DNA of 64,000 nucleotides from Candidatus Poribacteria bacterium (lineage in GTDB: Bacteria > Poribacteria > WGA-4E > PCPOR2b): NCBI GenBank assembly GCA_028819845.1, contig JAPPKS010000023.1:95673-159672 (forward strand). Reading direction: 5' to 3'. Both the position numbers and the translations under genes were made by a program. Shown here piece by piece: positions 3,545 to 54,411 of the stretch. The notes below the pieces were generated by a model, which saw only the letters and a program-made list of their open reading frames with translations, did not search any database and had not been told where the DNA came from. Position 1 is the first letter of the stretch, and every line of letters begins with the position of its first letter.

Positions 3545-6298
3545 ATGAAAATAGTTTCGACGATATTTTTCCTTTTCTTTGCAATTTCACTGCACTGCCT
3601 TGCACAAGACCCTTCACAGTGGGATTTGCCCGAAGACGCCAGAGAGCGCGTCGGCAAAGGTTGGATTACGGAAATTCAGTATTCGCCGGATGGCTCTCGT
3701 CTAGCGGTAGCGAGCTCTATCGGCATTTGGATTTACGATACCGAGACGCTTAAAGAGGTTTCGTTGCTCTCCGCGCACACGGAGGAGGTCACCGCACTGG
3801 CATATTCCATTGATGGGAGTATACTCGCCAGCGGGAGTTGGGATAGGACCATACGGTTGTGGGATCCTGAAACTGGCGAGGTGCTGCAAACCCTCGAAGG
3901 GCATTGGAGTGGAATTCGCAGCATAGACATTAACTCTGATGTGACCACGCTTGTCAGCGCGAGTTACGACCGGACGGTTCGGCTTTGGGATATTGAGACG
4001 GGCGATGAGATTCGGATTCTCTGGGGGCATCGAGACCGTGTCAATACTGTGGCATTCAGTCCGGATGGCACTAAGATCGCCACCGGGAGTTGGGACCAAA
4101 CGGCGCGTTTGTGGGATGCCGCCACAGGAGACCAACTCCAAATCATCACTGCGCACAGGTCGCTGGTTCAAGCGGTAGCGTTCAGTCCAGACGGGGAGAC
4201 GCTTGCCACGGGAGATTACAACGGTGAGATTCACCTCTGGGACATTGCGACAGAGACACAGACTGCGGTTCTCACTGATCATACATCCCTTATCTTTGAC
4301 CTCGCCTTTTCTCCGCTAGACAGCGGCACACTGGCAAGTGTAAGTGAAGACGACACTATCCGCCTGTGGGACACGGAGGCAGGTACGCTCAAGAAGACGA
4401 TTACCGAGCATACCGCCGATGTGATTAGAGTTGTTTTTAGTCCTGACGGCGGTACAATCGCCAGCGGCGCTTGGGATGCGACTGTTCGTTTTTGGGACGC
4501 GGAGACAGGTTCACACCTAAATACAATAACCGGACATGCGGATGTTGTTTTGAGCGTTAGTTTCAGACCGGACGGTCGTGCGCTTGTTGGGCGAAGTTGG
4601 GACTCTACAATTCGGATATGGAACACGGAAACGGGAAAACTCGATCATGTCTTGTTTGGGCATACGGACGATGTAGGTATTGTGGTCTTCAGTCCGGATG
4701 GGCGCACACTGGCTAGCGGCAGCGAAGACCACACAGTCCGTTTATGGGACGTTGAAACCGGGGCGCACTTGAAAACTCTCGTCGGGCACAGAGCTTATCT
4801 AATTACCCTCGCATTCAACGCCGATGGAACCATGCTTGCCAGCGGCAGCGAAGATGATGATATCCGCTTGTGGGATGTAGCATCCGGAGCGCGGCTGCGA
4901 ACACTCATCGGACATACGACAGGGGTGGAGGGACTAGCTTTTAGCCCCGATGGCCGCACGCTCGCGAGCGCAAGCCGAGACAATTCTGTCCGTTTATGGG
5001 ATGTCGAAAACGGCAAGGAATTGCACAAACTTCTGGGACATCGCGGTGATGCGATTACCGTTGCTTTCAGTCCTGACGGAAACACGGTGGCGAGCGGCGG
5101 TTGGGACGCTGTCATCCGTTTGTGGGACGTTTCCACCGGCGAGTTGCGGGAATCCGTCGAGTCGTTTCACACCGGCATTAAGAGCATAACGTACAGTCCG
5201 GATGGTGAGAAGATTGCGACCGGAAGTTGGGATAATACTGTACGCCTTTGGGATACTAAAACGCTTGCGCGTATCAAGACCTTTCATGGACACAAGTCGT
5301 TCGTCTATAGCGTCGCATTCAACGGGGACGGCAGCGTAATTGGCAGCGGCGGGGTTGACGGTACGTTATTGCTGTGGGAGACGCCGCCGTTACCCCCAAT
5401 CTACGTCAAGACGCTAGCACAGGGATTGAACATGATTTCCCTGCCGCTAATGCCAGAAGACTCGATTTCTGCCCGTGCACTCGCTCAGATGGCGAATGCC
5501 ACCGCTGTTATTCGATTCGATAGGGAGACTCAGGGCTTCATAGCATTCACGGATGATGAGCGCGGGTCGGGCTTCCCGATTGAAGGCGGCGAGGCTTATA
5601 TCGTCAACACGCCGGATGGCGGTTCAGTGGCATTCTCCGGTGAGGCGTGGGAGAACGAACCCGCTGCAGCACCGCCGGTCAGTCCTTTTAGAGAAGCTTG
5701 GGCATTCATCGTGGCTAGCGATTTGAAAAATGCCGTGGCTGATACCAACTATACGGTAATTGCCGAGAATCTGCGTACCGGTGTTGTTGTAACTGACGAA
5801 ATCGCCCCGAACAAAACACGTGTTGCTGCTGTTTGGGCCGATCTCAATCGGAATAGTGTGGTGCGAGCAGGTGATAAGCTGGACATCACAGTGATTGATG
5901 ACGGAGGGAACACTGTTTCTGGCCCGCACCGCTACACGGTCGACGTTGCCGACATCCGCAAAGCTTACATTCGCCTGCCGCTAGTTGTTGGTGACATACG
6001 TCCGGTGCAGACGCTGCTCGCGCAGAATTTTCCCAATCCGTTCAACCCAGAGACGTGGCTGCCCTTCCAGCTTAGTCAACCTGGCCTTGCCGCCATACAG
6101 ATATACGATGCGTCTGGGCGCCTCATAAGGACACTTGACCTTGGCGCAAAACCGGCGGGATACTACATGACACGATCCAAAGCTGCATATTGGGATGGCC
6201 GCAACAGTTCCGGTGAACGTGTTGCCTCCGGCAGCTATTTCTACACGCTTGAGACGGACGAATTTTCCGCGACGCGTAAGATGTTGATAGCTAAATAG
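3545..6298 (+). CDS. Exported WD40 double-propeller protein, paralogue of the upstream gene
   Basis: A 917-residue exported protein. The start at 3545 is chosen because GGAG lies nine bases upstream and the signal peptide (MKIVSTIFFLFFAISLHC) begins there; an in-frame ATG at 3485 would add 20 unlikely residues. About 14 WD40 repeats run to about residue 615. From about 620 a beta-rich module begins (VKTLAQGLNMISLPL), and from about 828 comes the NFPNPFNPETW Ig-like/sorting tail. The repeats align in order with those of the gene at 990, so the pair arose by tandem duplication, but the EF-hand module of the first is replaced here. Role inferred as extracellular binding or scaffolding. Confidence 0.88.
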   Translation: MKIVSTIFFLFFAISLHCLAQDPSQWDLPEDARERVGKGWITEIQYSPDGSRLAVASSIGIWIYDTETLKEVSLLSAHTEEVTALAYSIDGSILASGSWDRTIRLWDPETGEVLQTLEGHWSGIRSIDINSDVTTLVSASYDRTVRLWDIETGDEIRILWGHRDRVNTVAFSPDGTKIATGSWDQTARLWDAATGDQLQIITAHRSLVQAVAFSPDGETLATGDYNGEIHLWDIATETQTAVLTDHTSLIFDLAFSPLDSGTLASVSEDDTIRLWDTEAGTLKKTITEHTADVIRVVFSPDGGTIASGAWDATVRFWDAETGSHLNTITGHADVVLSVSFRPDGRALVGRSWDSTIRIWNTETGKLDHVLFGHTDDVGIVVFSPDGRTLASGSEDHTVRLWDVETGAHLKTLVGHRAYLITLAFNADGTMLASGSEDDDIRLWDVASGARLRTLIGHTTGVEGLAFSPDGRTLASASRDNSVRLWDVENGKELHKLLGHRGDAITVAFSPDGNTVASGGWDAVIRLWDVSTGELRESVESFHTGIKSITYSPDGEKIATGSWDNTVRLWDTKTLARIKTFHGHKSFVYSVAFNGDGSVIGSGGVDGTLLLWETPPLPPIYVKTLAQGLNMISLPLMPEDSISARALAQMANATAVIRFDRETQGFIAFTDDERGSGFPIEGGEAYIVNTPDGGSVAFSGEAWENEPAAAPPVSPFREAWAFIVASDLKNAVADTNYTVIAENLRTGVVVTDEIAPNKTRVAAVWADLNRNSVVRAGDKLDITVIDDGGNTVSGPHRYTVDVADIRKAYIRLPLVVGDIRPVQTLLAQNFPNPFNPETWLPFQLSQPGLAAIQIYDASGRLIRTLDLGAKPAGYYMTRSKAAYWDGRNSSGERVASGSYFYTLETDEFSATRKMLIAK

Positions 6299-9883: not shown

Positions 9884-12800
9884 TCCATTTCTGGCGAATC
9901 CACCTCGCTGTGTTGATGGGTACGGCGGTAGCGACAGCAGTTCTCACCGGAGCGCTTCTCGTCGGCGATTCCGTTCGCGGCAGCTTGCGCGACCTAACGT
10001 TGGATCGATTGGGCGGAATTGATTATGCGTTGGTAACAGAACAGTTCTTTCGAGAAGCGTTGGCGGCGGATTTTTTGAATCAGCCGGAACTTGCGGAGCA
10101 ATTTGAAGACGCGACACCTGCGATTCTTCTCGGCGGAACCGCTGTTAACGCCGACACCCGCGCCCGTGCGTCTCGTGTCCAGATTCAGGGAATTGACGAA
10201 CGATTTTTGAACCTGTGGACGACAGGCGAAGCAGCTAACCTAGGCGGATTTCTGGAAAAACAGCCAGGACAATCATTCCCATCAGTCATTATTAACCGGT
10301 CTCTGCAGAGGGAATTAAAGGTCCAAGTCGGATCACCCCTCTTAATCTCATTTGAAAGACAGAGCGATATCCATCGTGAGTTTTTACTTGGGCGCCGTGA
10401 TTCTTCCGATGTCGTGCAGACTCTCCGACTCACCATTACGAACATCATCCCTGATCGGGGCCTCGGTAGATTCAGCCTAGATTCCAGCCAATCCCTACCG
10501 TTTAATGCCTATGTCCATCTGCCCATATTACAAAACACGGTCGGGCAAGCGGAATCGGCAAACGCAGTCTTCATCTCTCAGTCTTCCCATTCGCCGCACT
10601 TCACAACCGACCTCCTAAAGTCCCTACATAGAGGGCTGCATCAGGTATTGAAACTCGAAGACCTTGGCCTGACGCTACGCCAGGGAAACGGTTATTTCGC
10701 ACTTGAAAGCAAACAGTTCCTTCTCAAACCGTATGTCATTGAGGCCGCGAAAACGGTTGCCACCGAGCGGATTAACCGGGCAAATAGAACGGGCGATAGC
10801 CTTAAGATTCTCCCAATTCTGACATATTTGGCAAACACAATTGAAACCGGCCAACGGCGATTTCCTTATTCGACGATTTCGGCGTTTAACCCGGTACACG
10901 CCGTGTCACTCCAATTGGCGGACGGTTCACCCGCACCCGCACTTGCCGAAGACGAAATATTTGTCAACGAGTGGGCTGCCGCAGATTTAGCCGCAAAGGT
11001 TGGAGACCAGATTGACGTGAGCTACTACGTTATGGGTGCTCGGGAAGAGCTACTAACACAGCACGCCCAATTCCGTTTGAAAGGTATTCTTGCTTTGGAC
11101 GGCTTAGCGGCGGATCACGGCTTGACCCCGAATTTCCCAGGCGTCCACGACGCCGATGACATGTCCGACTGGAACGCTCCTTTTCCAATCGATCTGAGCC
11201 AAATCCGTTCCAAAGATGAACTCTACTGGGATCTGTTCCGTGCTACTCCCAAGGCGTTTGTTTCAGAAGAGGCGGGGCAGCGGTTGTGGCGAAGCCGATT
11301 TGGAAGTTTGACCGGAGTCTGGATTTTCCCGGCTTACCGCGGCGATGTCCAGCATGCTATAGCGGAATTTCAAGAGGGATTATTGGAAATGATTCAGCCC
11401 GACCAGGTCGGTTTGGTGTTCAAGCCGGTCAAAGCGCAAGGTTTAAAAGCTGCCGCGGGCGCCACGGACTTCAGCATGCTGTTTATCGGGTTTAGTCTGT
11501 TTCTCATTGTGTCCGCAGTGCTCTTGGTGGGCTTGCTATTCAGGCTGGGCGTAGAGGGGCGGGCGGGTGAGATAGGGTTGTTGTTGTCTTCGGGCTACGC
11601 CGTCTCCACCATCCGTTGGCGTTTTATGAAAGAGGGTTGTTGGCTCGCCGGGATCGGCGGTGCGATTGGTCTCGGCGGCGGTGTATCATACGCATGGCTC
11701 GTAATGGCAGGCTTGCGAAGCTGGTGGCTGGCGGCGGTCGGCACGCCTTTTCTGGTACTTCACATCAGCCCGTTGAGTTTGGCGCTTGGTTACTTATTCG
11801 GTATATTTGCGGTTCTATTTTCAATCTGCTGGACGGTTCGAAAATTCGGCAAATTACCAGTTCGAGCGCTGCTTGCCGGTGATGCAATTTTAGAGTACAA
11901 GACCGCCGGACGAATTGCACCGATTATCGCCTTCGGCGGCTTGGGGCTCGCCGCAGGTTTAATCATATTTGCCGTAGTTTCCGGAAGGACATCGTCAGCG
12001 GCGCTATTTTTCGGAAGCGGCGCGCTACTACTAACTGCCGGGCTGGCTTTCTTCTCAATGCGGCTCCGAGCTTCCTCTTACTCGCTTTCCGGCAGCCAAA
12101 AGCTGAGAATTGTGCGGATGGGTGTACGCGATAGCGCGCGCCGCAAGGGGCGGAGTATGCTCTGCGCGGCGCTGGTTGGCTGCGCCTGCTTTGTGATTGT
12201 TGCCGCCGGCGCCAATCGGCACAGCGGCGCGCGACATGATATCCTGCTGCAGGAAGAATCGGGATCGGGCGGATTCGCGTTGACTGCGGAATCAGATGTC
12301 CCGCTGCATCACAACTTAAACACGGAGGAAGGGCGATTTGAACTCGGGTTCTCTGAATCGGACGCGGCAATGGTAAATCAGTCCGAGATAACCCAGTTGC
12401 GGCTCTTGCCCGGGGAGGATGTCAGTTGTTTGAACCTCTACAAACCTAGAAAACCTCGCATCTTGGGCGTTCCCGCCGAGTTTATCGAACGCGGCGGGTT
12501 TCAGTTCCAAAAGGCGTTGTCAACAACGCCTGAGGTCAGCGCAAACCCGTGGCGTGCGCTTGAGGTTGAGGAGGAAACCGGCGTAATTCCAGCCATCGGT
12601 GATTACAACTCTGTCCTCTGGATTTTGCATCTCGGTCTTGGCGAGGATTTGATTATTCAGGACGAATTTGGAGAGTCGTTAACGTTGCGATTGGTAGGGC
12701 TTTTGCGAAGTAGCATCTTTCAGAGCGAACTGTTAATTTCTGAAGCAAATTTCAAGAAACACTTCCCCAGCCAAAGCGGATATTCGTATTTCTTAATCCA

Positions 12801-20018: not shown

Positions 20019-20141
20019 TCACTGCACACGACGTTTAAACCCAAAACCTCGTACCATCAAAAGTTAGTATGAATAACGGGCCACCAAACGAAATGAACGA
20101 CTTTGGTGAATTGCGGAGAGGCGGAAGGCGTTTGTCGCTAG

Positions 20142-20268
20142 GCTTGAAATAAACTGGGACTTGTGTTAATATTTTAGCTTAATGAGGAGTTTTTGTTTTC
20201 GGCTGGTGTCACCGCGAAGCGTTGGATTTCATCTCAGATTATCCTTGTGCGGCGTGAATAGTCACGCC
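20142..20268 (+). promoter_or_regulatory. Duplicated promoter-leader element, copy 1
   Basis: About four-fifths identical by hand alignment to 21818-21945. TTGAAA (20144) and TTAATA (20166) are spaced 16 bases as a sigma-70-like pair. The transcribed part has hairpin potential at GGAT..ATCC (20223-20244) and GGCGTGA/TCACGCC (20251-20268). The LamG gene starts about 100 bases after it. It could be a shared regulatory leader or a dispersed repeat. Confidence 0.55.
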
Positions 20269-21643: not shown

Positions 21644-21845
21644 ATCACTTCGCGTCACCCTCATCCTGCGCGTGTTATCAAGAACTCTTGTAAATGCTCA
21701 AGGGCAAGTAGATGAAAATTTCAATCTGCTAAAGCGCGATGCGAGACAACCATCCTTACATCTGAAGAGAGCCGGAGGGTTTTGGTGCGCTAAGGTGAAG
21801 AAGGCGCTTGTTGCGATGCTTGAAATAAACCGGGACTTGTGTTAA
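21640..21845 (+). pseudogene. Partner toxin, frameshifted and truncated
   Basis: From ATG 21640 the frame reads MNHFASPS then CYQEL. A shift near 21690 is needed to continue as NAQGQVDENFNLLKRDARQP and SLHLKRAGGFWCAKV, after which the normal C-terminal half (the VWFWIGxHxxYD block) is missing. The break falls where copy 2 of the promoter-leader element starts, as if that element replaced the 3' end. Confidence 0.7.
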
Positions 21846-21945
21846 GATTTCAGGTTGATGGGGAGCCGCTGTTTTCGGCGGATCTCGCCGCGAAGCGTTG
21901 GGTGTCATCTCAAATCACCTTGTGCGGCGTGAAATTTCACGTCGC
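21818..21945 (+). promoter_or_regulatory. Duplicated promoter-leader element, copy 2
   Basis: TTGAAA (21820) and TTAAGA (21842) are separated by 16 bases as in copy 1. The 3' part has the 11-bp palindrome GCGGCGTGAAA/TTTCACGTCGC (21924-21945, one G-T wobble) and a GGTG..CACC hairpin at the place where copy 1 has GGAT..ATCC. The BMP-family lipoprotein gene starts 50 bases later. Confidence 0.55.
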
Positions 21946-44970: not shown

Positions 44971-45771
44971 ATGGACCAAAACCAGCGAATCGCCGCATAT
45001 AAGGAGTACAGTCCTCGAGCCAGTCGATTATCCGAGGAGAAATTTCTGCTCTTTCTAGAAGATATAACCGCGGTCTTTGACGGTTTCAAAGCGCTAGATA
45101 TACAGGCGTTGGGAATTGAACATAACGAACTCCGTGTCATTATTGGCCCCAACGGGGCGGGAAAAACAACGCTCTGCGATGTGGTAAGCGGAAAAACCAG
45201 GCCGACGACTGGATATGTCTTTTTCGACGGCACCGATATTACTCAACAGACGGAGGAGGAAATTGCGTTACGGGGAATCGGTAGAAAATTTCAAACACCG
45301 ACAGTTTTTGATAGCCTCACGACCTACGAAAATATGGAACTCGCCCTACCGGACCACTACCATCTGTGGCCCAATCTGTTTGGACACACAACAAAAGCCC
45401 AGCGGGAACACATCTTAGAAATTTTAGAGCGAGTCGGTCTCGTAGATGCGTTAGACCTTGAAGCCAAGTATTTGAGTCACGGACAACGTCAATGGTTGGC
45501 GATTAGCACACTTATCCTATCCAACCCCAAATTGCTCCTCGTCGATGAACCTGCCGCCGGTTTAACGGATGCCGAAACGGCGTTGACAGCGGAACTCCTC
45601 CTTGAACTGAAAGGTGACCATACGCTTATCGTCATTGAGCACGATATGGATTTTGTACGCCAGCTTAATTCGTTCGTAACCGTGCTGAATGAAGGGGTCA
45701 TCATGGCAGAAGGATCCATGCAAGAGGTTCAGCAAAACGAGGAGGTCATTGAGGCATATCTGGGCAGATAA
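44971..45771 (+). CDS. urtD: Urea ABC transporter ATPase UrtD
   Basis: A 266-residue LivG-type ATPase. Walker A is GPNGAGKTT, LTYENMELALPDHYH, signature LSHGQRQWLAISTLIL, Walker B LLLVDEPAAGLTD, switch VIEHDMDFV. The last 47 bases (45724-45770) are repeated at 47870-47916 on the far side of an inserted ATPase gene. Both copies keep the frame EVIEAYLGR and a stop. About 145 bases with a dispersed GTAGGGGCGGG-type repeat separate it from urtC. Confidence 0.94.
   Translation: MDQNQRIAAYKEYSPRASRLSEEKFLLFLEDITAVFDGFKALDIQALGIEHNELRVIIGPNGAGKTTLCDVVSGKTRPTTGYVFFDGTDITQQTEEEIALRGIGRKFQTPTVFDSLTTYENMELALPDHYHLWPNLFGHTTKAQREHILEILERVGLVDALDLEAKYLSHGQRQWLAISTLILSNPKLLLVDEPAAGLTDAETALTAELLLELKGDHTLIVIEHDMDFVRQLNSFVTVLNEGVIMAEGSMQEVQQNEEVIEAYLGR
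45724..45770 (+). repeat. 47-bp direct repeat, left copy (urtD 3' end)
   Basis: Identical at 45 of 47 positions to 47870-47916. The two mismatches (A/G at the eighth base, T/A at the twenty-seventh) leave the encoded end of UrtD nearly unchanged. Homology stops abruptly at both borders; the right border falls within the stop codon (TAA here, TAG in the other copy). Confidence 0.93.
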
Positions 45772-45807
45772 TCAGTTATGAAGCGGAAAGCTAAGTATGT
45801 GTAGGAA

Positions 45808-45836
45808 TTGACTTATTGTTGTGGTTTTGCTATTAT
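45808..45836 (+). promoter_or_regulatory. Promoter at the head of the inserted segment
   Basis: TTGACT (45808-45813), 17-base spacer and TATTAT (45831-45836), beginning 38 bases after the left direct repeat. It would give the inserted ATPase gene its own transcript with a leader of about 290 bases. The rest of 45772-46131 holds no gene I can support. Confidence 0.65.
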
Positions 45837-46131
45837 TGTTGCGTCAAACACAGCTGCGCGCGTGAAATAGCCTCCCTTTCACAACATCCGACCGCGTAAC
45901 CGAAAGTTGTAAACCATTTTCTCCAATGTAGGGGCTCCTGTTCGTCGGTATATCTTTGACCATAGGTTGGTATATCCGTCCGGTGGTTAGGTTGCCGGAA
46001 TTTAGCACAATACGATTACCCTTGAATGATAGAACAACGCAACGGGTTTGACTTTGTCATGTACCGGGCAAATTTAAAGGAGATCGAATCACGCTAGAAG
46101 CCGAAGTATTCAGGACCAGTTTGGAGTTTCA

Positions 46132-47871
46132 ATGCTAACAAAATTGATTTGCCGAAATTTCAAGAATTTTGATGATGTAGAAGTCGAATTGGGGAACCCT
46201 GTGGTTTTTATTGGTCCGAATAACTCTGGCAAAACTACAGCATTACAGGCGCTTGCGCTGTGGGATGTTGGTCTCAAACGTTGGAACGAAAACCGTAAGG
46301 GGAAGCCAAATCCAGAAAAACGCCCCGGCGTTGCTATCAATCGACGCGATCTCATCTCGGTCCCTGTCCCGAATGCGAGGTTGCTTTGGCAAAATTTGCA
46401 AGTTCGAGATACTCATAAAATTGATGGAAGGCAACGGACGCAAAACGTCCGTATGGATATAATTGTTGAAGGTGTTACCGCAAATAGGCAGTGGGCGTGC
46501 GGCTTGGAATTCGATTATGCCAATCAGGAATCCTTTTACTGCAGACCCCTACGATTATCAGAAATCGATGGCAAGGTGTTGAAACGAATGCCGGTTCCTG
46601 AAGAGGCAGCGCACCTTGATGTCGCATTCTTGCCGCCGATGTCTGGACTCGCGTCGAATGAAACGCGACTCGATCCGGGCGCGATTAATGTCCGTGTTGG
46701 CGAAGGACGTACCGCAGAAGTCCTCCGCAATCTCTGTTTTCAAGTTTTGCACGAGCATCGGGATGAAGAAACTTGGGGAAAAATTTGCCAACAAATTCGA
46801 GAGCTGTTCGGTGTTCAACTTGATGAGCCTGTCTACATTCAGGAGCGGGGAGAGATAGAGATGAATTACCAGGACAATTCAGGTGTCACTCTGGCACTGT
46901 CGTCTTCCGGGCTGGGGTTTCAGCAAACACTACTTTTGCTCGCGTATATTGCGGCACGACCGGGCTCTGTCCTTCTCCTTGACGAACCAGATGCTCACCT
47001 TGAGATTCTCCGACAGCGGCAGATTTACCAGGTGCTTAGTAAGCTGGCGAAAGCACAGGACAGTCAAATCATCGCTGCCAGTCATTCGGAGGTCATACTC
47101 AACGAAGCCGCCGCACGGGATGTAGTTATCGCTTTTCTTGGCGATCCGCACAGAGTTGATGACCGTGTCAGCCAGCTATTGAAATCCCTCCGGTCGATCG
47201 GCTTTGAGCAATATTATCAGGCGGAACAGAGGGGTTGGGTACTCTACCTTGAGGGTTCGACCGACCTAGCAATTTTACAGGCGTTTGCCGAGAAGCTAGA
47301 TCATCCCGCGCAGGATGTATTGGAGCGTCCATTTGTTCACTACATTGGAAACCAACCACAGAAAGCCCGTGAGCATTTTTTTGGATTGCGAGAGGCAAAA
47401 CCGAATTTGGTTGGATTCTGTCTATTCGATCGGATGGATTACGGACTACGAGACAGACCTGAATTACGAGAATATATGTGGACACGGCGTGAAATAGAAA
47501 ACTACCTTTGTGGAAAAGATGTGTTAATCCGATGGGCAGAGGTTGAAGAAGCACAACGGTCTATGGGACCGCTGTTTAGTAATCTATGGTCACCCGCAAT
47601 GGAAGAGACAATCGCAGAGGTTGAAAATGCTTTAAAGACGCTTGGCAAAGGATCGCCTTGGTCAGCAGATACCAAAGTAAGTGATGATTTTCTGAGTCCT
47701 CTATTTGAAGCTTTTTTCAAGAAACTGGGTTTGGAAAATCTCATGCAAAAGACGAATTATCATACGCTCGTTCAATACGTTTCATCGGATGGGATAGACC
47801 TAGAAATTCGGGACGTGCTTGATGGTATCCAAGAGATAGCGAACCAAGCAGTTCCAATTACCGAAAGGTGA
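46132..47871 (+). CDS. AAA ATPase-TOPRIM protein (OLD or fused PARIS AriAB-like)
   Basis: A 579-residue protein. The N-terminal ABC-type AAA domain has Walker A GPNNSGKTT (residues 28-36), a LSSSGLGFQQTL signature, Walker B LLLDEPDAHLE (Asp284, Glu285) and switch IIAASHSEV. The C-terminal part looks like a TOPRIM/DUF4435-type domain: LYLEGSTD (Glu374), CLFDRMD (Asp433, Asp436) and WTRREIENYL. This architecture occurs in OLD nucleases and fused AriAB of the PARIS phage-defence system. TTGGAG precedes the ATG. It interrupts the urt cluster between direct repeats and has its own promoter. A defence role is inferred. Confidence 0.8.
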   Translation: MLTKLICRNFKNFDDVEVELGNPVVFIGPNNSGKTTALQALALWDVGLKRWNENRKGKPNPEKRPGVAINRRDLISVPVPNARLLWQNLQVRDTHKIDGRQRTQNVRMDIIVEGVTANRQWACGLEFDYANQESFYCRPLRLSEIDGKVLKRMPVPEEAAHLDVAFLPPMSGLASNETRLDPGAINVRVGEGRTAEVLRNLCFQVLHEHRDEETWGKICQQIRELFGVQLDEPVYIQERGEIEMNYQDNSGVTLALSSSGLGFQQTLLLLAYIAARPGSVLLLDEPDAHLEILRQRQIYQVLSKLAKAQDSQIIAASHSEVILNEAAARDVVIAFLGDPHRVDDRVSQLLKSLRSIGFEQYYQAEQRGWVLYLEGSTDLAILQAFAEKLDHPAQDVLERPFVHYIGNQPQKAREHFFGLREAKPNLVGFCLFDRMDYGLRDRPELREYMWTRREIENYLCGKDVLIRWAEVEEAQRSMGPLFSNLWSPAMEETIAEVENALKTLGKGSPWSADTKVSDDFLSPLFEAFFKKLGLENLMQKTNYHTLVQYVSSDGIDLEIRDVLDGIQEIANQAVPITER

Positions 47872-47916
47872 GGTTCGGCAAAACGAGGAGGTCATAGAGG
47901 CATATCTGGGCAGATA
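47870..47916 (+). repeat. 47-bp direct repeat, right copy (urtD tail)
   Basis: The second copy of the urtD 3' end (45 of 47 bases match 45724-45770). It starts inside the stop codon of the inserted ATPase and again encodes the urtD ending with a TAG stop. The sequence after it is what leads into urtE. Confidence 0.93.
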
Positions 47917-47962
47917 GCGACGAGAACGCGGGATTCAGAAATAGAGAAACCCGTTTGGATGT

Positions 47963-48053
47963 GCGTTTACGCATTACTCGTTACGCATTACGTATTACGC
48001 ATTACTCGTTACGCATTACTCGTTACGCATTACTCGTTACGCATTACGTATCA
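47963..48053. repeat. Heptameric tandem array before urtE
   Basis: Thirteen 7-bp units, mostly alternating CGCATTA and CTCGTTA with CGTATTA variants, 91 bases in all. It ends eight bases before the ATG of urtE, in the place where a ribosome site would be expected. It resembles STRR heptamers of cyanobacteria. Confidence 0.9.
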
Positions 48054-48061
48054 CCAACATC

Positions 48062-48757
48062 ATGCTAACAGTCTCAAATCTCTCATTTTCATACGGCGAA
48101 GTCCAAGTGCTGCGTGGGGTGGATATTCACGTGCCTGCGGAGACAATTGTCTCGATGATGGGACGCAACGGTGTGGGAAAAACGACACTGATGAACAATA
48201 TCGTCGGGCTGCTCAAACCGTCGTCCGGCTCGATAAAAATCGAAGACCGTGAACTTGTGCGCGTTTCGACGCACCGGCGGATACGCGCCGGGTTGGCGTA
48301 CGTACCGCAGGGACGGATGATATTTCCGAAACTGACGGTTGAAGAAAATTTGCGGGTCGGGCTATCGGCGCGTGCTGATAAACGCGCACAAATCCCGGAT
48401 GAGATTTATGAACTCTTCCCAATTCTCAAAGAGATGGGAGGTCGGATGGGCGGCGACCTCTCCGGGGGGCAGCAACAGCAACTCGCTATAGGACGCGCGC
48501 TCGTCACTGATCCGAAGGTTCTTATCTTGGACGAACCCACCGAGGGCATCCAACCGAACATCATCCAACAGATTGGGGTGGTGCTGCGGCAATTGGTGCA
48601 AAACAGACGGCTTACAATTCTTATCGTCGAACAGTACCTCGATTTTGTTCGGGAATTCTGCCAGCAGTTTTTCATCATGAACCGCGGTGAGATTGTCGCA
48701 CACGGTGAAACTGACGCGCTCAACCAGAACATGATTCGGGAGTACCTTAGCGTCTAA
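48062..48757 (+). CDS. urtE: Urea ABC transporter ATPase UrtE
   Basis: A 231-residue LivF-type ATPase. Walker A is GRNGVGKTT, signature LSGGQQQQLAIGRAL, Walker B VLILDEPTEGIQP and switch IVEQYLDFV. The PTEGIQPNIIQQIG string is typical of UrtE. The region just upstream is a heptamer array with no visible Shine-Dalgarno, so translation may depend on a downstream or unusual signal. ureD starts one base after the stop. Confidence 0.94.
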   Translation: MLTVSNLSFSYGEVQVLRGVDIHVPAETIVSMMGRNGVGKTTLMNNIVGLLKPSSGSIKIEDRELVRVSTHRRIRAGLAYVPQGRMIFPKLTVEENLRVGLSARADKRAQIPDEIYELFPILKEMGGRMGGDLSGGQQQQLAIGRALVTDPKVLILDEPTEGIQPNIIQQIGVVLRQLVQNRRLTILIVEQYLDFVREFCQQFFIMNRGEIVAHGETDALNQNMIREYLSV

Positions 48758-53002: not shown

Positions 53003-53077
53003 CGACCCATCGCGGTTGAAGGCCGGGAGTTGCGCGTTAACCAGCGATTGGAAAGAACCAAGAAAAAGTCCCATTCT

Positions 53078-53671
53078 ATGACTGACTCAATTCTCGAACG
53101 ATGGGGTATCACCCCGGAAGAACTTACCGAGGTTATTGACCAGAATCCGAGCCTTCGTGGTATGATTCTGGGATATTTGGCAGAATTCAAACTCGAAAAA
53201 CTCTGGTTGTCTGGTCACGGGATTTCAGACGTAACCAAGTACGATGATCATGATCGAAAGAAGAAGGGAGACCGCGTAATTCGCTATAGAAACCATGAGT
53301 TTATCTATGAATCCAAGTCACTGCAAACATCTACAATTAAGAGGACGGCGGAGAGTTGGGTAGGTAAAGCGCAAGTGGACGCAAGTGACCGCCGAGAAGT
53401 GGTCCTGCCAGATGGCAGCACTGTCACGACTACTTGTTTGGTAAAAGGAGAGTTTGATATACTAGCCGTTAACGTTTTTGCCTTTGAAGATACTTGGCGA
53501 TTCGCTTTTGCTAAGAATTCGGATCTGCCCACATCAAACTACAAGAAGTACACAGAATATCAACGCCAACATCTATTGGCTACATTGGTCGAAGTCCATT
53601 GGCCGCCGAGGATTCCATTTCGCGAAGAACCGTTTACTTTGATGAATGAGATTATTCAGAATCGCATCTGA
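53078..53671 (+). CDS. Putative restriction endonuclease (PD-(D/E)xK-like)
   Basis: A 197-residue protein. [20 protein letters not shown] offers Asp65 and Glu78-x-Lys80, the pattern of a PD-(D/E)xK nuclease core, and LAEFKLEK supplies a possible helical Glu36. No family name is assigned with confidence. Its 3' end overlaps by 16 bases the convergent methyltransferase gene, an arrangement common in type II restriction-modification pairs. The start at ATG 53078 has only A-rich upstream signal. Confidence 0.6.
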
Positions 53672-54411
53672 GATGCCTTTTTTCCCTTCGGAATCTTTAC
53701 GAACACAAGAAAGTAAGAATGATTCTTTCTAGCATGAACCTGTTTCAACAACCTGCTTACCCCAGGTCTATTTGGCCGCACAACGACGAACAAATCCTTA
53801 CAGAAGAAACCAATCTCTGTATATGCATTAATTACTTCTACGTGCGTGAGATTTTGGCGATTGGCACTTACTTCATCTTGGCACTTCACAATGAACACTC
53901 CTCTATCACGCAGTACACGATGCGCTTCGCGTCCTCCATCTTCGTAAAATTCCACAACAGCGGCGTGCCATTTAGCGCCTCCGTTTTTCGGTGCTTCGTG
54001 ACCATTTGAGTAGTGGTCGCGAAAAGCATCGTGTGTTCCTGCACCAGCTTTTATCGAATTGCCATTTCGGAAGAATCCCTCCATGTATGGCGGATCAAAG
54101 ACTATACAATCAAAAGATTCGTCCTCGTAGGGCAGATTACGGCAGTCGGTCCCATCAGCTATGTCTGATGGATGAAAGTCGTATATCTCGGTACGAACTT
54201 TTCGCCAGAAAACACCTTTTCCATAAGTAATGTCCGCAATTTTCGATCCTTCCGAGACGTGGAGGCGCAACACATTAGGAAAGATGTCTGCATTATTGCC
54301 CACATAGGCAGATACGACCAGATTAGTTGTAGCAATCCCGTCTGGTCTTTTTCGTCCCGATACAACTCGTTCTTCCGGCACGGGCAGCAAGTCTAATTGT
54401 TTTGTCGCCAT
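53656..54411 (-). CDS. DNA methyltransferase (DPPY type)
   Basis: A 251-residue SAM-dependent methyltransferase of the N6-adenine/N4-cytosine class. Catalytic motif IV is DPPY (106-109). [10 protein letters not shown] (60-69) occupies the motif I position, with a mid-chain [11 protein letters not shown] strand just before motif IV. A long insert follows motif IV ([19 protein letters not shown]). It starts three bases after the ribbon-helix-helix gene and ends overlapping the nuclease gene. It would protect DNA against the partner nuclease. Confidence 0.82.

What the first reader, a model, noticed from the sequence alone, without database searches (positions are those of the whole stretch)
45724..47916. 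ATPase-TOPRIM gene inserted at the 3' end of urtD between 47-bp direct repeats
The last 47 bases of urtD are repeated (45/47) 2.1 kb downstream, with sharp borders, and each copy regenerates the urtD ending plus a stop. Between them lie a promoter (45808) and a 579-residue OLD or AriAB-like protein, with no integrase. Gene-end targeting that rebuilds the target gene is known for site-specific integration of islands; here a single defence-like gene appears to use an essential nitrogen operon as its dock. Alternatives are a tandem duplication or homologous exchange with a relative.
Basis: partly seen in the sequence, partly recalled or inferred. Interest (0 to 1): 0.85.

Follow-up and report, generated by a model that had tools for sequence, protein, structure and literature searches.

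The report
OLD-like nuclease gene inside urea-uptake operon
A single, probably anti-viral nuclease gene sits between two genes of a Poribacteria urea-uptake operon, flanked by a 47-letter copy of the neighbouring gene's end; the gene is of a known sort and probably old at that spot, while the copied end is a recent scar like those described where restriction genes have inserted without a recombinase of their own.

Summary
The host is Poribacteria. Empty urtD-urtE junctions with one urtD end exist in seven relatives. But two genomes of a sister family carry the same ATPase after urtD without the repeat. These three ATPases form a clade (alternatives rejected, AU 0.014 and 0.006), about as diverged as the urt genes, so the gene is probably older at this site than the repeat. 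Gene-end targeting by an integrase is not supported. The protein is a single-gene OLD-family-like ATPase-TOPRIM protein, found over many phyla at 55-78% identity and absent from the plasmid, phage and IMG/VR collections searched. The closest pair at different sites shares only the gene itself. Five of 104 other loci also have the terminus of a neighbouring gene repeated across the ATPase (36 to ~190 bp), against 0 of 222 control genes. That resembles the "insertion with long target duplication" described for restriction-modification genes. Best reading: a recombinase-free, gene-sized defence unit with a recent long target duplication at urtD, by joining a filled to an empty allele or by a second insertion. 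Function is inferred only.

The parts
44971..45771 (+). urtD, urea ABC transporter ATPase (266 aa)
   Evidence: ABC_tran 6.6e-29 and BCA_ABC_TP_C 5.2e-9; synteny urtA-urtE, ureD-ureC
45724..45770 (+). 47-nt direct repeat, copy 1 (functional 3' end of urtD)
   Evidence: the two bases that differ are the usual ones of relatives here
45771..46131 (+). 361-nt upstream region of the ATPase gene, single copy in the genome
   Evidence: not detectably homologous to the matching spacer in G009/G012
45808..45836 (+). candidate sigma-70 promoter TTGACT-17-TATTAT, extended -10
   Evidence: consensus match only; a TTGA-N-TATAAT match lies at a similar place in G009 and G012 (sequence seen)
46132..47871 (+). 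OLD-family-like ATPase-TOPRIM gene (579 aa)
   Evidence: AAA_21 1.4e-20, AAA_15 1.8e-19; AriA/GajA/Old models; best fold match OLD nuclease 6P74; C-terminal domain matches OLD TOPRIM structures 6NJX, 6NJV, 6NK8
46213..46236 (+). Walker A region, GPNNSGKT (residues 28-35)
   Evidence: alignment of 43 members
46975..47004 (+). Walker B region, LLDEPDAHLE (residues 282-291)
   Evidence: residues 282-291 invariant over 43 members
47200..47868 (+). C-terminal TOPRIM-like nuclease domain (residues 357-579); E374 nearly invariant, D433 and E454 invariant
   Evidence: model mean pLDDT 93.6; fold search; alignment
47870..47916 (+). 47-nt direct repeat, copy 2 (second urtD end, followed by G giving TAG)
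   Evidence: 2/47 differences; its CGG is found in no relative
47953..48061 (+). array of 14-nt units TTACGCATTACTCG/TTACGCATTACGTA before urtE
   Evidence: family D1
48062..48757 (+). urtE, urea ABC transporter ATPase (231 aa)
   Evidence: ABC_tran 9.2e-33; synteny

Best explanation
The gene between the repeats is a stand-alone OLD-family-like ATPase-TOPRIM nuclease, most likely an anti-phage (or anti-plasmid) gene, that travels as a bare gene without a recombinase. It has probably sat between urtD and urtE since the common ancestor of this genome and the sister family f2. The 47-bp second urtD end is a recent long target duplication: a piece carrying the ATPase was joined into the 3' end of an empty-type urtD, for example by exchange between a filled and an empty allele, with pairing at urtD on one side and end joining at the ATPase stop on the other, so that the last 47 bp of urtD were kept on both sides and urtD stayed intact. 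Shown: the repeat, the empty sites, the shared position in f2, the clade, the gene-sized homology between members, the repeated gene termini at other members. Inferred: the order of events, the joining mechanism, and the defence function.
For: Exact repeat only around the ATPase. Empty junctions with one urtD end in relatives. G009 has urtD-ATPase-urtE without repeat; G012 has urtD-ATPase running into a contig end. ATPase clade G000+G009+G012, SH-aLRT 97; AU test rejects both alternatives. ATPase distance G000-f2 0.34 against 0.25-0.27 for urtA-E, and 0.11 against 0.11 within f2, so the ATPase is not younger there than the urt genes. The copies differ at only 2/47 while the intergenic sequence no longer aligns with f2, so the repeat is young. 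Family-level signature: 5 of 104 other loci have a neighbour-gene terminus repeated across the ATPase against 0 of 222 control ORFs, p=0.003, classified after the fact; 5 against 2 for any strong repeat, p=0.036. L121/L123 are 87% identical in DNA with homology only from -29 to +7 around the gene.
Against: No same-genus relative is held, so an empty or repeat-free allele near G000 was not seen. The spacer after copy 2 resembles the G001 spacer only weakly (272 of 2000 shuffles do as well), and no mosaic was found in urtD or urtE. The shared position in f2 could instead be two insertions. In L157 the two hsdS-like ends differ mainly at synonymous sites, which suggests a relic of a second hsdS rather than a target duplication.
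Confidence: 0.45

Rival explanations
1. Recent independent landing: the ATPase gene inserted into the 3' end of urtD in this lineage with a 47-bp target duplication, and the f2 genomes are a separate insertion at the same permissive junction.
For: A single event explains insert and repeat together; copy 2 ends in TAG like urtD of four of five g2 genomes; the junction also took a 23S rRNA IVP gene in G001, with remnant-like sequence in G004 and G012; spacers of G000 and f2 are not detectably homologous; same signature in five other loci.
Against: Needs two insertions of sister ATPases at one junction, while other Poribacteria hold the gene elsewhere; ATPase divergence matches descent alongside the urt genes.
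Confidence: 0.27
2. Local templated copy: the ATPase is an old resident and 47 bp of urtD were copied behind it by replication template switching or by a partial tandem duplication followed by deletion.
For: Old residence; no movement needed.
Against: Does not explain why neighbour-gene termini recur at other members of the family but not at control genes; that the copy is exactly the gene end is then coincidence.
Confidence: 0.18
3. Site-specific integration at the urtD 3' end by an integrase acting in trans, the ATPase being the cargo.
For: Gene end rebuilt, as at many integrative islands (established knowledge).
Against: No integrase or other cargo; the sequence occurs nowhere else in the genome; other members sit by unrelated genes at 5' or 3' ends with different repeat sequences and lengths; no hit in plasmids, phages or IMG/VR.
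Confidence: 0.04
4. Assembly artefact.
For: The genome is a draft assembly of 35 contigs.
Against: Contig of 303 kb, conserved synteny on both sides, the two copies differ at two sites, and G009 shows the same gene at the same junction.
Confidence: 0.02

Closest known systems
Insertion with long target duplication of restriction-modification genes (Nobusato et al. 2000; Furuta et al. 2010; summarised in PMC3031569 and PMC1643837)
   Same: Defence-type gene, no recombinase of its own, long and variable direct repeats of the target around the insert, neighbouring gene kept whole
   Different: Cargo is a single OLD-like ATPase-TOPRIM gene, not an R-M system; here the gene is probably older at the site than the repeat; no pair of near-identical genomes with and without it was available
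Class 1 OLD nucleases (Thermus scotoductus OLD, PDB 6P74; P2 Old)
   Same: Single gene, N-terminal ABC ATPase, C-terminal TOPRIM, best full-length fold match
   Different: 14% identity; C-terminal domain closest to TOPRIM regions of class 2 OLD proteins (6NJX, 6NK8) yet without a GajB partner; no sequence-family match for the C-terminal domain
PARIS (AriA/AriB or fused AriAB)
   Same: ATPase matches AriA and AriAB models; 8UX9 is the fourth hit of the C-terminal domain
   Different: Fold match of the C-terminal domain to the PARIS complex is weak (prob 0.35); no separate ariB; better match to OLD
Integrative elements at gene 3' ends
   Same: Repeat rebuilds the gene end
   Different: No integrase, no shared att, and related loci involve gene 5' ends as well

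Membership tests
OLD family nuclease | N-terminal ABC ATPase with Walker A, signature, Walker B | tested here: met
   AAA_21/AAA_15 matches; G28, K34 and residues 282-291 invariant in 43 members
OLD family nuclease | C-terminal TOPRIM domain | tested here: met
   Model pLDDT 93.6; top three PDB matches are OLD C-terminal (TOPRIM) regions, prob 0.99-1.00, TM 0.43-0.46, E 0.002-0.004; a fold-level result only
OLD family nuclease, class 1 | Stand-alone gene without a helicase or reverse transcriptase partner | tested here: met
   No such gene between urtD and urtE; members at different sites share only this gene
OLD family nuclease | DNA cleavage and ATP hydrolysis | not testable with these tools
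   needs biochemistry
PARIS | AriA plus AriB or a full AriAB fusion | tested here: inconclusive
   AriAB model: best stretch covers residues 278-461, E 1e-16; weak structural match to the PARIS complex
Gabija (GajA) | UvrD-like helicase GajB next to GajA | tested here: not met
   urtD and urtE are the neighbours
Insertion with long target duplication | Direct repeats of the target of tens to hundreds of bp around the insert | tested here: met
   47 bp here; 36 to about 190 bp at five other members
Insertion with long target duplication | Near-identical genome with one target copy and no insert | tested here: inconclusive
   Empty sites exist, but only in other genera
Integrative element at a gene 3' end | Integrase, or an att sequence shared by members | tested here: not met
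Anti-phage defence gene | Protects against phage | not testable with these tools
   needs a plaque assay

The most novel reading that the evidence does not exclude
The ATPase-TOPRIM protein takes part in its own movement: its nuclease makes or processes the break into which the bare gene is copied, giving long variable target duplications at gene borders, so that a single gene is both a defence system and a minimal mobile element without a transposase.
Probability: 0.06. Interest if true: 0.85.

Novelty: new member of a known kind. Interest (0 to 1): 0.42.

Why it matters
How single defence genes without recombinases spread and settle in chromosomes is poorly known; long target duplications were described for restriction-modification genes. 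This family would be a second, widely spread class with the same scar and with members that share only the gene, so the question can be tested by comparing many genomes. It also shows that a gene-end repeat need not mark the first arrival of the gene it flanks.

Tried and rejected
Integrase-type docking: rejected for lack of any integrase or common att. Carriage by plasmids or phages: no match at the thresholds used. Recent transfer from f2: not supported by the distances. Mosaic urtD or urtE: no change point. Native spacer after copy 2: similarity to the G001 spacer not better than shuffles. A 23S rRNA IVP gene elsewhere in this genome: none found. Spacer element repeated elsewhere in the genome: none. 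Searches centred on G118, G131 and G140 at phylum level held only 1-4 genomes each. The key paper Furuta et al. 2010 is not held, so its content is taken from citing papers.

Full report
Observation. The last bases of urtD (45724-45770) recur at 47870-47916 with two differences and sharp borders. The second copy keeps the reading frame and ends in TAG. A pattern inside the repeat occurs only at these two places in the 4.6-Mb genome. Between them lie 361 unique bases and an ORF of 579 codons, whose stop TGA shares two bases with copy 2. There is no integrase gene. The candidate promoter at 45808 is a consensus match and no more.

Setting. Related loci are named Candidatus Poribacteria. Relatives show the junction in several states. 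It is empty or nearly so in G003, G006, G007, G008, G011, G014 and G016. In G001 a 23S rRNA intervening-sequence-type gene (PF05635) sits there, and G004 and G012 hold what look like remnants of it. In G009 of sister family f2 the same ATPase stands between urtD and urtE; in G012 it follows urtD and the contig ends inside it, the rest opening another contig. None of the 29 other poribacterial ATPase loci tested has a flanking repeat like that of G000.

Age. The two bases that separate the copies are unusual in copy 2: its CGG is seen in no relative, while its second change is shared with G008 only. In a tree of 106 members the ATPases of G000, G009 and G012 group together, and an AU test rejects the alternatives at 0.014 and 0.006. 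The urtA-E tree cannot resolve the three lineages. The ATPase distance between G000 and f2 is at least in proportion to that of the urt genes. So the ATPase was probably at this junction before f1 and f2 parted, and the repeat, with 2 changes in 47, is younger. The alternative is two insertions at one junction, which the IVP-type gene at the same place makes a little less unlikely.

Protein. Pfam sees only the ATPase; defence models of the NsnB, AriA, MADS3, GajA and Old kinds match it. The model of the whole protein matches OLD nuclease 6P74 best. The C-terminal domain, modelled alone with pLDDT 93.6, matches OLD TOPRIM structures first and PARIS fourth, although no sequence family matches it. 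Walker motifs, E374, D433 and E454 are conserved. In the literature class 1 OLD proteins are single genes, and no bacterial one is yet known to give broad phage defence by itself (PMC10568477); AriB of PARIS is a tRNA-cleaving TOPRIM nuclease (PMC12409363). Whether this protein cuts DNA or RNA cannot be told.

Spread. The family is found at 55-78% identity in Acidobacteria, Planctomycetes, Chloroflexi, Proteobacteria, Gemmatimonadetes and others, and in 20 of 385 genomes of a broad set, but not in the plasmid, phage or IMG/VR collections at the thresholds used. Relatives at different sites share only the gene: L121/L123 are 87% identical in DNA and the likeness ends 29 bases before and 7 after the ORF. 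About ten further pairs with 64-79% identity also lose their likeness close to the ORF, where decay of the flanks is an alternative. Many f3 Poribacteria keep the gene before one and the same neighbour, aldo/keto-reductase-like to judge from its first residues only, so it can also be stable.

Scars. Of 105 distinct loci tested, six have the terminus of a neighbouring gene repeated across the ATPase: urtD 3' end here; an Eco57I-type methylase 3' end, 44 bp (L134); an hsdS-like 3' end, 75 bp (L157; the name rests on my reading of the sequence, Pfam gave none); an SDR start, about 30 bp strong within about 100 (L118); a SNF2-type helicase start, 31 bp strong within about 190 (L123); an LCM-type methyltransferase start, 36 bp (L111; gene names). 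Among 222 control ORFs of the same loci two had strong repeats, a tandem gene pair and a palindromic repeat, none a gene terminus. Leaving out G000, which was chosen for its repeat, 5/104 against 0/222 gives p=0.003, and 5/104 against 2/222 for any strong repeat gives p=0.036. The classes were set after seeing the data, so these values are a guide only.

Reading. These scars look like what has been called insertion with long target duplication, described for restriction-modification genes in Helicobacter and said to be long and variable (PMC3031569; PMC1643837). I take the urtD repeat as a recent scar of that kind in a place where the gene was already at home, most simply made by joining a filled and an empty allele. 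The steps of the joining are inferred. Direct repeats of this kind would also let the gene be lost with precise repair of urtD.

Noticed in passing
window 47953-48061: Array of 14-nt units TTACGCATTACTCG / TTACGCATTACGTA directly before urtE.
   Followed up: no
L005 2361-2750 (G001); remnant-like sequence in L010/L057 (G004) and L050 (G012): A 23S rRNA intervening-sequence-type gene (PF05635) sits at the same urtD-urtE junction, with decayed copies in two other genomes: the junction takes up different single genes.
   Followed up: partly
window 53030-53671 (+) and 53656-54411 (-): Convergent pair of a 213-aa protein without Pfam match and a DNA methylase (N6_N4_Mtase), possibly a restriction-modification pair just after the urease genes.
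   Followed up: partly
L108 about 5800-5900 and 10065-10230: Regular 33-34-nt repeats spaced 68 nt on both sides of the ATPase in a Planctomycetota contig look like CRISPR arrays.
   Followed up: no
L059, L073, L142 and other Poribacteria flanks: An 18-mer AACCGCAATAYAGTCTCG (either strand) recurs near the ATPase in several Poribacteria, apparently a dispersed repeat.
   Followed up: no
window 20124-20239 and 21800-21915: 116-nt direct repeat, 82% identical, ahead of two different genes.
   Followed up: no
L123 and L121: In L123 the insert holds the ATPase plus a 99-aa ORF, while sister L121 has the ATPase at another site with different neighbours.
   Followed up: partly
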